From the IMG/VR virus record IMGVR_UViG_3300042923_000725, positions 1 to 36,228 of that record: a DNA stretch of 36,228 nt, one strand, 5' to 3'. A model generated the notes under the pieces. The model searched no databases. It had not been told where the DNA came from and was given only the letters and a program-made list of their open reading frames with translations. Origin of the DNA: a virus. Below, one piece after another: positions 21,452 through 25,528 of this stretch; position 1 is the stretch's first letter; the number at the start of each line of letters is the position of its first letter. Made by a program: the position numbers and the translations under genes.

Positions 21452-21481
21452 TTGCGTAATTTCAGTTGATCGCCGTATAAT
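21452..21481 (+). promoter_or_regulatory. Sigma-A promoter upstream of the LexA box
   Basis: TTGCGT (21452-21457), 18-bp spacer, TATAAT (21476-21481). The LexA box starts 2 bases downstream of the -10, covering the transcription start. Confidence 0.65.
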
Positions 21482-21483
21482 GG

Positions 21484-21495
21484 GAACAAATGTTC
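21484..21495. promoter_or_regulatory. LexA (SOS) box 1
   Basis: GAACAAATGTTC matches the Gram-positive LexA core GAAC-RNRY-GTTC exactly. In 36 kb I found this core only twice, both times at promoters of the lysogeny region. It covers the start site of the 134-residue protein gene, so that gene should be induced by DNA damage. Confidence 0.8.
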
Positions 21496-21512
21496 TCGTT
21501 AGGAGTGATGGT

Positions 21513-21917
21513 GTGCAAACGATAAAACGAGTTCAATTGCCGACCGATCAAGAAATGCAGCTTATTAAAAATTACGTTATTCTTCCGCTTGTGCTCAATG
21601 TTTTCGAGCGAGATAAACAAAAGATCGAAAAGGAACAGTTATTTAAAACGTTTCTGCCCTACGTTGCGATGTTCGATCTAGTCATAAGTAGGATAATGCA
21701 GGATCTAACTCATGTTCGTAAAGAGATGCGGAAGCGAGGCATAAAAGTTTACGATGGCGAGCGGAAGGCTGATAAGCTCACTCACGAATACAAGTGTCGA
21801 GGCTACATGGGTAATTATGAAATGTTATGGAGTACTATCCGTTCTGACGTCGAAATCGTCATGAACCATTATCTTGGCGTGTACGAGAGCGAATTGGTAA
21901 AAGCCGGTCACCTGTGA
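21513..21917 (+). CDS. SOS-controlled protein of unknown function
   Basis: 134 residues from GTG 21513, 7 bases after AGGAG; the ATG at 21480 overlaps the promoter and LexA box and cannot be the start. Predicted helical, with hydrophobic helices around LIKNYVILPLVLNVF and FLPYVAMFDLVISRIMQDL, a basic middle and NYEMLWSTIRSDVEIVMNHYL near the end. No family recognised. It is monocistronic, between its own SOS promoter and a strong palindromic terminator. Candidate roles are inhibition of division or an effect on induction; both are inferences from regulation only. Confidence 0.7.
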   Translation: MQTIKRVQLPTDQEMQLIKNYVILPLVLNVFERDKQKIEKEQLFKTFLPYVAMFDLVISRIMQDLTHVRKEMRKRGIKVYDGERKADKLTHEYKCRGYMGNYEMLWSTIRSDVEIVMNHYLGVYESELVKAGHL

Positions 21918-22082: not shown

Positions 22083-23540
22083 TCAATTTGCATACCAAGA
22101 TATTTCGGCCGTTTCGCCATTTTCGATCCTGATGGAATGGACAACTTGACGGATTGCGTTCTTCGCCTTAATGCGGTCTATAGAAGTAACATCGCCTAAC
22201 AGCTTCCTTGACGTCTCCTGAACTTTCTGATGCTCGAACGATTGATTGCCTTCCTCAAGCTCATTTAACGTCTGTGTGAGCCTCCTGCGGTCTTCCTCGA
22301 CCTGTTCCGTCGCCCTCTTTAATGCTTCAGCTGTGATCAACTCGTCTGTATAAGCTTCGATTTGTTTTTGCATTTTCCTGTCTAGGCGTTCAATTTTAGC
22401 TATTATTACGTCTTTTTCAAGCGATGGTGCCGCCTTTGGCTTCGCAATCACTAGTTGAAGAGACCCCGGAGCTGCTTGTGCAACTTCTTTGATCCTGGCA
22501 ATAATGAGCAATTCAAGGTCGTCCCGAAAAACGTAATGATAAAAACAAGTCCCTTTCTTCAAATACCCATCGCATACGTATTTGTAATAAGGTGCCTGTT
22601 GATCAGGTCGCTTAGACCGGCTTTGTTGCTTCTTTCCGTTCATGACTGATCCGCAATGCCCGCATCGTATTAACCCCGAAAGCAAATAGGTATCATCACG
22701 AACGTGTCGGCCAATTGACTTCCTGCCTTCAAATTGGCGTTGAATCTCCTCGAAGGTTTCGTTTTCCAAGATCGCGTCATGGTGATCAGTAATTCGAATC
22801 CATTCGCTTTCAGGTCTTTTAAGTATTCGCGTGCCTTGTTTGTAAGTGACATTATAAACAAAGTTGCCTATAAGGGTTTCACGTTTAAGGAGTTCGCGGA
22901 CAATTCGTTCATGCCATTCGTAGCCGCCTTTAGTTTTAATGCCCATCTTGTTTAGGCGCATGGCTATACTACGTCCACCTTCTCCTTTTATGGCCCATTC
23001 AGCCATATTACGGACGATCAGGGATTCTTCGTAATTAATAAACCGTACCCCATCGACAATGTCATACCCATAACACGGACGAGTGATTTCTTTTTCGCCT
23101 TTGCGGGCTAGGGAAAGCATATTATCCCTCACCCTTTCTGCATTTCGTGCTCGTTCAAATTCGGCGACTGCTCCAAGAATTTGGAGCGTAATCCGCCCGG
23201 CTGGTGTTGTCGTATCGAACTTCTCACTAGCGGAAGCAAACTCGCATTGATATTTTTCAAGAAAGTCAATAAGGTTCAAAAGATCAAGAAGCTTACGGCA
23301 TATCCGATCGATTTTGGTTATGATGACGATTTTTCCTTTTCCCTGCTTCGCATCATCCAACAATCGAGTCATAGCTGGTCTTCGCATGTCTTTCGCGCTG
23401 TAACCGTCATCGACATAGAAAATGGGCTCGTCCAACCCATAGGTGATACAATACGCCTTCAGACGTTCTTGCTGTTCGTCCAAGGAATTTCCCTCGACCT
23501 GCTCGTCCGTACTAACCCGGATATAAGCTAATGGCTGCAA
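22083..23540 (-). CDS. int: Large serine recombinase (integrase)
   Basis: 485 residues from TTG 23540, 9 bases after GGGAGG; an ATG at 23573 lies upstream of that site. Catalytic domain: Ser10 in PLAYIRVSTDEQ, YVDDGYSAKDMRRPAM, IITKIDRICRKL and EFERARNAERV. Recombinase domain to about 280, zinc ribbon with cysteines 293, 296, 323 and 332, then a coiled coil (about 365-445). Such enzymes integrate phage DNA unidirectionally between attP and attB and need a directionality factor to excise. It is last in an operon headed by the ImmA-like protease behind a LexA box. Confidence 0.96.
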   Translation of the reverse strand: MQPLAYIRVSTDEQVEGNSLDEQQERLKAYCITYGLDEPIFYVDDGYSAKDMRRPAMTRLLDDAKQGKGKIVIITKIDRICRKLLDLLNLIDFLEKYQCEFASASEKFDTTTPAGRITLQILGAVAEFERARNAERVRDNMLSLARKGEKEITRPCYGYDIVDGVRFINYEESLIVRNMAEWAIKGEGGRSIAMRLNKMGIKTKGGYEWHERIVRELLKRETLIGNFVYNVTYKQGTRILKRPESEWIRITDHHDAILENETFEEIQRQFEGRKSIGRHVRDDTYLLSGLIRCGHCGSVMNGKKQQSRSKRPDQQAPYYKYVCDGYLKKGTCFYHYVFRDDLELLIIARIKEVAQAAPGSLQLVIAKPKAAPSLEKDVIIAKIERLDRKMQKQIEAYTDELITAEALKRATEQVEEDRRRLTQTLNELEEGNQSFEHQKVQETSRKLLGDVTSIDRIKAKNAIRQVVHSIRIENGETAEISWYAN

Positions 23541-23563
23541 AGTCAGAACCCTCCCTAAATGGT

Positions 23564-24013
23564 TTATTTCCATCTGTAATAACGATCAATGTCTTCTAGC
23601 TGCATAATTTCCTCGATATCAGCCATCTGAATAATGAATTGTTCGGCCCGAATATAATGATCGTCAGGTGTTTCAGATCGATCTACAAAAACGCCACGAT
23701 CTTCGAGTTCTTGAATTCGTCGATCGATGTCTTTTTCGAGCCTGTTGATTAAATACGGGAGATAGATGCCGAAGCACGGCCCGATTTGCGCCTCTTTTTC
23801 CGGATTCCGAATCATCTCTCCTTGCGTGATGGTGACAGACATAATATCGTTGTCAAAATCCTCCATGCGATGAAGCTTAAACGGTGATGTTAAAGCAAGG
23901 TAAAAATAGTTCTTGTCCCATGCGATCTTACCGGGTCCAAAGTAAACAACCATCTTCATAGGCGCGAGACTGAACGTCTCTGGGTGTTCTTCAAAATATA
24001 CAGAAACTTTCAT
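23564..24013 (-). CDS. Hypothetical protein between protease and integrase
   Basis: 149 residues from ATG 24013, 8-9 bases after AGGAGG; a TTG at 24019 is too close. An N-terminal beta-rich part (KVSVYFEEHPETFSLAPMKM) and a C-terminal acidic helical part (LEKDIDRRIQELEDRG, ending IEEIMQLEDIDRYYRWK). No family recognised. Located between an ImmA-type protease and the integrase in one operon, so a role as directionality factor or integrase/protease partner is possible but unproven. Confidence 0.65.
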   Translation of the reverse strand: MKVSVYFEEHPETFSLAPMKMVVYFGPGKIAWDKNYFYLALTSPFKLHRMEDFDNDIMSVTITQGEMIRNPEKEAQIGPCFGIYLPYLINRLEKDIDRRIQELEDRGVFVDRSETPDDHYIRAEQFIIQMADIEEIMQLEDIDRYYRWK

Positions 24014-24015
24014 TT

Positions 24016-24633
24016 TCAATTTCCTCCTCTGTTTTCTTCACGGAATTTTCGAGCAAAATCCTCTTGAACTAGCTTGATACGCTCTGCTGTAATCACCACC
24101 TTGGGTTGGGGATGCTTGTAGGATCGATCGATCCGGCCCCAGAAAATGCGATTGCTGATATGAAACAATCGACGTTTAACAAGCGAAATCGGAAGGCAAA
24201 ATGCTTCGGCCAAGTTTTTCTCTAAAATTTGCAGAGTCGGGCTCTGGTCTATGTATTCCTGGATCATGTAAATTGGCATTGAGGCGTACAACTGAAATTG
24301 AGAGGCTTGATTTTCTTGCAGCTCCCTGATTAGTGTCGGCAACTTGTGTTGAATGCCTACATGCTTTAAAGGGTGACATAGTTCATGAAAGAATTTTTCT
24401 CGCGTGGTTTCCTCATCATCCTTTTCATTAAGCAAAATAATGGCATTGTGATAACCGTCTTCGCGATCCTCCCAGTCGGCCATGCATTTCCCGGAATAAT
24501 AATGCACCTGGATGCTAAAAATGCGGGACACCCGGCTGATCTGTAAGTCCATCGCACGATAAAGTCCATTTTCTTGATAGAGGCCATTCAGTTCAATCTC
24601 CAATTCCGATAACTGATATAGGCTAAAATCCAA
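24016..24633 (-). CDS. immA: ImmA/IrrE-type metallopeptidase
   Basis: 205 residues from TTG 24633 after GGGGTG. The zinc protease motif HELCH (83-87) lies in the context REKFFHELCHPLKH, as in the ImmA/IrrE (M78) family; the upstream YHNAIILLNE is also typical. In ICEBs1 of Bacillus subtilis, ImmA cleaves the repressor ImmR to induce the element (established). Here the adjacent repressor gene is the likely substrate. A perfect LexA box lies 17 bases before the start, which would add direct SOS control. Confidence 0.9.
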   Translation of the reverse strand: MDFSLYQLSELEIELNGLYQENGLYRAMDLQISRVSRIFSIQVHYYSGKCMADWEDREDGYHNAIILLNEKDDEETTREKFFHELCHPLKHVGIQHKLPTLIRELQENQASQFQLYASMPIYMIQEYIDQSPTLQILEKNLAEAFCLPISLVKRRLFHISNRIFWGRIDRSYKHPQPKVVITAERIKLVQEDFARKFREENRGGN

Positions 24634-24650
24634 AACATCACCCCATACAG

Positions 24651-24662
24651 GAACATATGTTC
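24651..24662. promoter_or_regulatory. LexA (SOS) box 2 at the immA-int operon
   Basis: GAACATATGTTC, a perfect match to the GAAC-RNRY-GTTC core, immediately upstream of the protease gene on the minus strand. A -10-like TATAGA (minus strand, 24661-24666) abuts it. The repressor terminator lies on the other side, so the operon needs its own promoter here. Confidence 0.8.
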
Positions 24663-24680
24663 TATACTAAGTTAAAAAGA

Positions 24681-24705
24681 AAAGCCCTCGTTGTAGTCGG
24701 GCTTT
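24681..24705 (-). terminator. Terminator between repressor and immA
   Basis: AAAGCCC (24681-24687) pairs with GGGCTTT (24699-24705) over an 11-nt loop. T-rich tracts on both sides (TCTTTTT on the minus strand, ATTTTTGTTTT on the plus) allow termination in either direction. It isolates repressor transcription from the immA-int operon. Confidence 0.85.
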
Positions 24706-24734: not shown

Positions 24735-25070
24735 TCACCTAGATTTTTTTTCTCTAAGAGTTTTGATAAAAGCATCAGCCAACTCAATTTCTTCTTGGGT
24801 CCAGCCTTTACCGCCATCAAAGTATGCTCGACCCGAATTTGGGTCTGCTTCGGTATACCCGAATTTTTCGAGAAGATCGTTTGGTGTCACACCCTTGAGA
24901 TATTTAGCGAGTATTTTGAGTTTTTCAGGACTGGCCTTATGAGTCCCTGCCTCAAGTCTATTTATAGTCGAATGACTAACTCCAGACTTATCAGCCAACT
25001 CTCTCTGGCTAGAATATCCACTTTCTTCCCTAAGCTTTGCAAAATAAATACCAAATTCTTTCAAATTCAT
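24735..25070 (-). CDS. XRE-family phage repressor (CI/ImmR-like)
   Basis: 111 residues. The helix-turn-helix spans about residues 8-65 (LREESGYSSQRELADKSG, VSHSTINRLEAGTHKASPEKL). The C-terminal 40 residues (GRAYFDGGKGWTQEEIELADAF) are a short dimerisation or protease-sensitive tail. It has no LexA-type autocleavage domain, so induction must act through another protein, consistent with the ImmA-like protease next to it. It diverges from the Cro-like gene across three operators. Confidence 0.9.
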   Translation of the reverse strand: MNLKEFGIYFAKLREESGYSSQRELADKSGVSHSTINRLEAGTHKASPEKLKILAKYLKGVTPNDLLEKFGYTEADPNSGRAYFDGGKGWTQEEIELADAFIKTLREKKSR

Positions 25071-25103
25071 ATGATATCACCTATTGCTTATTTTAACATT
25101 ACT

Positions 25104-25165
25104 GTTTCACGTATGAAACGATAATGTTGTTTCATGCGTGAAATTAATTGTTGCACGAATGATAC
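25104..25165. promoter_or_regulatory. Three repressor operators in the lysis/lysogeny switch
   Basis: O1 GTTTCACGTATGAAAC (25104-25119), O2 GTTTCATGCGTGAAAT (25129-25144) and O3 GTTGCACGAATGATAC (25150-25165) share GTTTCA-N4-TGAAAC, with one mismatch in O2 and two in O3. Spacings are 25 and 21 bp. O3 overlaps the -35 of the rightward promoter and O1 lies near the leftward start region. Confidence 0.8.
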
Positions 25166-25219: not shown

Positions 25220-25528
25220 TTGAGGATTTTGCTTCGAACAGAAGCTCTGGACAACATCCAAAAAGAACTAGGTCTCAATGAGCAGGATTTCGCAGAACAC
25301 CTAGATATATCTAGGGCGCAACTATGGAGGGCTAGGCTAAATCCGGAGGATAAAAGATTTTCGTTAGGTCAAGATTTCATTGCAAAAATACTCGACAAGT
25401 TAAAGAGGCCATTTGAAGAAATATTTTTTTTGGACCAAGTGTCTCAAGCTTGTTACACACCGGTAATTAGGGAGGAAAGGTATGAAAAAAAGGTCCATCA
25501 TCCAAAATCCTTTACGGATCATAAGTGA
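25220..25528 (+). CDS. Cro-like HTH protein
   Basis: 102 residues from TTG 25220 after AAGGAGGTG. A helix-turn-helix is visible at about residues 16-50 (LGLNEQDFAEHLDISRAQLW). It is the first gene rightwards from the switch, where Cro or an antirepressor is expected. Its 3' part contains the right arm of the 18-bp inverted repeat, and it overlaps the next gene by 47 bases. Confidence 0.75.
   Translation: MRILLRTEALDNIQKELGLNEQDFAEHLDISRAQLWRARLNPEDKRFSLGQDFIAKILDKLKRPFEEIFFLDQVSQACYTPVIREERYEKKVHHPKSFTDHK
25440..25457. repeat. 18-bp inverted repeat, right arm
   Basis: Exact reverse complement of 25185-25202, lying inside the coding end of the Cro-like gene. The two arms enclose the ribosome-binding site, start and HTH region (237 bp). 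Confidence 0.8.

What the first reader, a model, noticed from the sequence alone, without database searches (positions are those of the whole stretch)
24651..24662. LexA box directly controls the ImmA protease-integrase operon
A perfect GAAC-RNRY-GTTC core lies between the repressor terminator and the immA-like gene. The same transcript would carry the protease, an unknown 149-residue protein and the serine integrase. In ICEBs1, RecA-dependent induction acts through ImmA, and the trigger is not understood to be LexA binding at immA. Here the phage appears to have placed the anti-repressor and integrase directly under host SOS control: DNA damage raises protease (destroying a repressor that lacks its own autocleavage domain) and integrase (for excision) together.
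Basis: partly seen in the sequence, partly recalled or inferred. Interest (0 to 1): 0.75.

Follow-up and report, generated by a model that had tools for sequence, protein, structure and literature searches.

The report
SOS switch on phage repressor-cutting protease
The phage carries a binding site for the host's DNA-damage repressor, LexA, right in front of the operon for a repressor-cutting protease and the integrase, and 231 of 245 related protease genes from Bacilli prophages carry the same kind of site, which gives a simple testable answer to how DNA damage wakes this class of prophage.

Summary
GGAACATATGTTCT lies at 24650-24663, between a terminator (24674-24705) and the TTG start (24633) of an ImmA-like M78 protease gene. 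That gene overlaps an orphan ORF, which overlaps a serine integrase. One such 12-mer per 36 kb is near chance, but comparison settles function. Of 245 distinct immA-like loci (distant relatives, mostly 18-45% identical), 231 carry GAACATAYRTTC with at most 2 mismatches within 75 nt upstream of the start; none of 245 in-gene control stretches does. Box identity is 84% against 34% in flanks. The commonest variant, GAACATACATTC, is the reverse complement of the recA operator, near-invariant in 29 of 29 Paenibacillaceae genomes. In a general sample of M78 proteases, 4 of 4 members of this subfamily have the box and 0 of 25 others do. The PBSX xre-xkdA locus has the same layout, and a paper already lists xkdA as LexA/SOS-regulated, so the kind is not wholly new. 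What is new is that it looks like the rule for a whole anti-repressor subfamily, distinct from ICEBs1-style immR-immA operons. LexA binding and repressor cleavage were not tested. Novelty: new variant of a known kind.

The parts
24650..24663 (-). LexA-type operator (SOS box) GAACATATGTTC core, starting 29 nt upstream of the immA start
   Evidence: same class of sequence as host recA and lexA operators
24674..24705 (-). intrinsic terminator of the repressor gene (stem AAAGCCC/GGGCTTT, 11-nt loop, T tract), separating repressor from immA
   Evidence: a perfect-stem terminator precedes the box in 106 of 175 non-redundant relatives vs 0 of 175 shuffles
24016..24633 (-). immA-like anti-repressor metalloprotease (205 aa, Peptidase_M78, HExxH kept, TTG start)
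   Evidence: PF06114 E 2.3e-8; phrog_87; H83, E84, H87 invariant in 36 relatives
23564..24019 (-). conserved orphan partner ORF (149-151 aa), overlaps the immA end
   Evidence: no Pfam, PHROG or NCBIfam hit; in 55 of 125 loci with at least 500 nt downstream; AF2 pLDDT 91, no PDB or BFVD match
22083..23573 (-). large serine integrase, overlaps the partner ORF; last gene of the operon
   Evidence: Resolvase, Recombinase, Zn_ribbon_recom; phrog_95
24735..25070 (-). XRE-family repressor (111 aa), HTH only, no S24 domain; likely ImmA substrate (inference)
25103..25164 (.). three copies of a TGTTTCACGTATGAAA-like repeat: likely the repressor's own operators, unlike the LexA box
25220..25528 (+). divergent Xre-like (cro-type) regulator, start of the rightward genes
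21483..21496 (+). second LexA-type box GGAACAAATGTTCT directly after TATAAT (21476-21481)
   Evidence: LexA-type box found in front of 12 of 17 homologous genes
21513..21917 (+). probable second SOS-controlled gene (134 aa, phrog_34234, function unknown)

Best explanation
The site is a host LexA operator that represses the immA-ORF-int operon in the lysogen. After DNA damage RecA triggers LexA self-cleavage, immA is derepressed, and the protease cleaves the small XRE repressor, which has no autocleavage domain; this opens the divergent early genes, while integrase from the same transcript is available for excision. Shown here by sequence: the operator, its position, its conservation across 245 loci, its match to host recA and lexA operators, the terminator that separates repressor and immA, and the operon overlap. 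Inferred: LexA binding, SOS induction, cleavage of this repressor, and the use of integrase for excision.
For: 231 of 245 immA loci carry the box with at most 2 mismatches to GAACATAYRTTC within 75 nt upstream, 0 of 245 in the within-gene control. Box identity is 84% vs 34% in flanks among 175 non-redundant loci. The commonest variant equals the reverse complement of the recA operator CGAATGTATGTTCG, seen in 29 of 29 host genomes with at most one base changed; the lexA promoters carry CGAAC-N4-GTTTG arrays. The box stays when the integrase changes type and when the repressor diverges (mean XRE identity 31%). The repressor's own operators have another sequence. In a general M78 sample, 4 of 4 subfamily members have the box and 0 of 25 others, Fisher 4e-5. 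The PBSX xre-xkdA locus has the same arrangement, and xkdA is listed as lexA/SOS and 17.8 in the expression table of PMC3896406. In Listeria, phi10403S induction needs the metalloprotease MpaR, and its excision under mitomycin C requires the SOS response, as a noncleavable LexA blocks it (PMC6872733).
Against: No LexA binding or induction data for this site. No consensus promoter was found between terminator and start; only TAYRTT inside the box could serve as a -10. A group of relatives has a degraded right half (GAACATACGATC, GAACATACGTGC), which should bind LexA weakly. The window is an isolated virus record, so its own host LexA is not known. LexA repression of int would hamper integration after infection unless another promoter exists.
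Confidence: 0.85

Rival explanations
1. The palindrome is an operator for the phage's own XRE repressor or another phage regulator, not for LexA.
For: Phage repressors often bind short palindromes near their own genes, and the inner ATA of the box is strongly conserved whereas the inner bases of the lexA operators vary.
Against: The repressor's own repeats are TGTTTCACGTATGAAA-like. XRE repressors next to these boxes share only 31% identity on average while the box stays 84% identical. The sequence matches host recA and lexA operators.
Confidence: 0.07
2. LexA binds, but as a roadblock or second brake on leaky read-through from the repressor gene; ImmA is mainly activated after translation, as in ICEBs1, and derepression only raises its level.
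For: No clear promoter between terminator and box. In ICEBs1 activation needs the RecA-dependent response or RapI acting through ImmA (PMC11841131), and Listeria MpaR cleaves more after mitomycin C (PMC6872733).
Against: Terminator, box and ribosome binding site keep a near-fixed spacing across 175 loci, as expected of a dedicated promoter. Relatives in which immA directly follows the repressor (Listeria phages LWP01 and FHC174-PLM34) lack the box.
Confidence: 0.3
3. Chance palindrome without function.
For: About 0.55 GAAC-N4-GTTC sites are expected per 36 kb and two were found; with one mismatch allowed 14 of 100 shuffles reach the observed count.
Against: Position and conservation over 245 loci exclude chance as an explanation of the site at immA.
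Confidence: 0.01

Closest known systems
Bacillus PBSX element: xre - xkdA
   Same: HTH repressor, terminator, LexA-type box (AGAACATACGTTCG), then an M78 protease 30% identical to the window's; xkdA is listed in the LexA/SOS regulon
   Different: No partner ORF or integrase downstream in the B. velezensis copy; PBSX is a defective element; the window's unit also carries partner ORF and serine integrase
ICEBs1 ImmR-ImmA
   Same: XRE repressor without autocleavage domain plus ImmA-type protease; RecA-dependent induction
   Different: [quoted passage not shown] Here immA has its own LexA box and lies behind a terminator
Coliphage 186 Tum, N15 AntC, Salmonella Gifsy anti-repressors
   Same: Anti-repressor gene placed under host SOS/LexA control; same logic
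   Different: Those anti-repressors bind or displace the repressor; here a metalloprotease is expected to cleave it. Bacilli, not enterobacteria
Listeria monocin MpaR / A118-like phages
   Same: M78 metalloprotease cleaves CI-like repressors after DNA damage; excision under mitomycin C needs LexA cleavage (PMC6872733)
   Different: No LexA operator at mpaR is described in the passages read; two Listeria phages tested here lack a box at their immA
Tectivirus GIL01 of Bacillus thuringiensis
   Same: Phage uses host LexA boxes in a Gram-positive host
   Different: LexA itself is the lysogeny repressor (with gp7); no protease anti-repressor

Membership tests
LexA operator (Firmicutes SOS box) | matches CGAAC-N4-GTTCG type and the operators of host recA/lexA | tested here: met
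   perfect GAAC-N4-GTTC core; window flanks G/T; relatives' commonest form equals the recA operator
LexA operator (Firmicutes SOS box) | located just upstream of the controlled gene and conserved there | tested here: met
   231 of 245 loci, mostly 28-45 nt before the start
LexA operator (Firmicutes SOS box) | bound by LexA in vitro and derepressed by DNA damage | not testable with these tools
   needs gel shift and reporter assays
ImmA/IrrE (M78, COG2856) anti-repressor protease | Peptidase_M78 domain with HExxH | tested here: met
ImmA/IrrE (M78, COG2856) anti-repressor protease | paired with an XRE repressor that lacks an S24 domain | tested here: met
ImmA/IrrE (M78, COG2856) anti-repressor protease | cleaves that repressor | not testable with these tools
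   inferred from ICEBs1, Listeria and Deinococcus precedents
ICEBs1-type immR-immA operon | repressor and protease genes co-transcribed as one operon | tested here: not met
   by sequence: terminator at 24674-24705 and a separate LexA box between the genes; transcripts not measured
PBSX-type xre-xkdA module | repressor, terminator, LexA box, XkdA-type protease in that order | tested here: met
   (hhalign 100% probability)
186 Tum-like LexA-controlled anti-repressors | anti-repressor gene directly repressed by LexA | tested here: inconclusive
   operator shown by sequence only; protein of another type (works like, not a member)

The most novel reading that the evidence does not exclude
ImmA-type prophage control in Bacilli splits into two classes: an XkdA/PBSX-type subfamily in which the signal is simply LexA derepression of the protease gene from a recA-like operator, often with a conserved orphan partner protein, and an ICEBs1-type class activated after translation. 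This would answer, for the first class, the open question of how DNA damage activates these proteases.
Probability: 0.6. Interest if true: 0.75.

Novelty: new variant of a known kind. Interest (0 to 1): 0.68.

Why it matters
[quoted passage not shown] A LexA operator conserved at 94% of 245 such genes gives a direct, testable answer for one large subfamily of Bacilli prophages, and a simple sequence rule (terminator, GAACATAYRTTC, ribosome binding site, immA) to tell SOS-transcribed from post-translationally activated systems. The match to the recA operator suggests, but does not show, that prophage induction is tuned to the timing of recA.

Tried and rejected
Whole host genome: G000 is only the 36-kb virus record, so host LexA could not be read; relatives' hosts were used instead. 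Counting CGAAC-type sites genome-wide is uninformative: the reversed control pattern gave more hits. Close-relative scans with single proteins found only 1-3 loci; the profile A1 gave the survey. The consensus promoter scan found no sigma-70 promoter at immA; TAYRTT in the box is the only -10 candidate that leaves the ribosome binding site in the transcript, not proven. The box in L032 is an unrelated double SOS box. Structure search of the partner ORF gave no match. PDB sequence search with the partner gave only chance-level hits. Phage and plasmid collections hold few relatives of this ImmA. A script error stopped the per-column XRE listing after the identity figures were printed.

Full report
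The site. GAACATATGTTC lies at 24651-24662. Read on the minus strand, the order is: repressor gene (24735-25070, HTH only), terminator (stem AAAGCCC/GGGCTTT and T tract, 24705-24674), 11 nt, the box, ribosome binding site GGGGTGA, TTG start of an M78 protease (24633), then a 149-151 aa ORF overlapping the protease end, then a serine integrase overlapping that ORF. One GAAC-N4-GTTC per 36 kb is near chance, so the sequence alone would not carry the claim.

Comparison. The nearest relative found at first (Paenibacillus, 42% protein identity) carries CGAACATACGTTCC in front of the same gene. In L033 the repressor is close to the window's (75% over the first 76 residues, 62% over the whole alignment) and the box CGAACATACGTTTG and an immA-like gene follow, but the integrase is of the tyrosine type: the box travels with immA, not with the integrase. 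In 30 Paenibacillaceae loci, 29 have a site 26-61 nt upstream. A profile of 36 relatives (A1) was used on viral contigs and on 400 genomes of the class; with fetched stretches this gave 245 distinct loci. A LexA-type core lies at -75..-12 in 204; with at most two mismatches to GAACATAYRTTC in the upstream 75 nt, 231; in a 75-nt stretch inside the genes, 0. Among 175 loci with flanks under 70% identical, flank identity averages 34% and box identity 84% (the box figure is helped by the pattern used to choose sites), and the layout terminator - box - ribosome binding site is conserved.

Is it LexA? In 29 of 29 host genomes the recA promoter carries CGAATGTATGTTCG with at most one base changed; its reverse complement, CGAACATACATTCG, contains the commonest immA variant (GAACATACATTC, 53 loci). 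lexA promoters of the same genomes carry arrays of CGAAC-N4-GTTTG. The repressor's own repeats, TGTTTCACGTATGAAA and two relatives at 25103-25164, are different, and the XRE proteins next to these boxes share 31% identity on average, so the box is unlikely to be their operator.

Which proteases? In a sample of the best M78 matches of the class, the four that belong to the A1 subfamily have the box (at most 1 mismatch) and 25 others, among them short proteases of about 145-170 aa and long proteins of about 380-440 aa, do not (Fisher 4e-5). Two Listeria phages with immA directly behind the repressor and a pBS32-like plasmid lack it, although their proteins score 72-105 bits against A1, so the boundary is not sharp by score alone.

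Relation to known systems. The PBSX locus of a Bacillus velezensis replicon (xre next to an ImmA/IrrE protease, with XtrA, sigma factor, amidase and Rap/PhrA neighbours) has AGAACATACGTTCG between the xre terminator and the protease; the protease is 30% identical to the window's. PMC3896406 lists xkdA under lexA/SOS with a value of 17.84 in its expression table. So LexA control of an XkdA-type protease has a precedent. In the papers read, ImmA activation is described as RecA-dependent or as of unclear mechanism (PMC7907104, PMC10233336, PMC11841131, PMC12637031), and no paper found states LexA control as the trigger for this class. The library holds open-licence papers only, so a statement in a subscription journal could be missed; the primary B. 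subtilis LexA regulon paper was not read.

Mechanism. Most likely LexA holds the immA operon silent; SOS derepresses it; ImmA cleaves the HTH-only repressor; integrase made from the same transcript serves excision. Binding, induction and cleavage are inferred. A promoter was not identified: TAYRTT inside the box has the T, A and final T of a -10 element in 78% of loci and is the only such position that leaves the ribosome binding site in the transcript, but no -35 is evident. An open problem is integration after infection if LexA also silences int.

Partner ORF. The 149-aa protein has relatives in 55 of 125 loci with enough downstream sequence, a confident predicted fold (pLDDT 91) and no match among solved or viral predicted structures. 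In four loci (L177-L180) its place is taken by an S24-like protein of about 140 aa (the LexA C-terminal domain family), seemingly without the catalytic serine as read by eye. Both facts suggest, without proof, a role in sensing or tuning the protease.

Verdict.

Noticed in passing
window 21476-21917: Second SOS box GGAACAAATGTTCT just after TATAAT, in front of a 134-aa gene (GTG 21513) of phrog_34234; homologs in 102 of 105 Paenibacillaceae genomes and in P. larvae phages Tripp and Heath, 12 of 17 checked with a LexA-type box; some appear to follow a YolD-like gene.
   Followed up: partly
window 23564-24019: Conserved orphan partner of ImmA with a confident predicted fold and no structural relative.
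   Followed up: partly
L177-L180 (partner ORFs, e.g. L177:4425-4841:-): Behind immA sits a stand-alone S24-like (LexA C-terminal domain) protein that seems to lack the catalytic serine, instead of the usual partner.
   Followed up: no
L030:3629-6473: Relative of the window's serine integrase behind a LexA-type box CGAACATACGTTCT that leads an HTH - exonuclease with BRCT - integrase unit without immA.
   Followed up: no
L314, L317, L324-L326, L331, L333, L335, L336: Group of immA loci whose box has a degraded right half (GAACATACGATC, or GAACACACGATC in L331), often followed at once by a TATAAT-like hexamer; weak LexA site or another binder.
   Followed up: no
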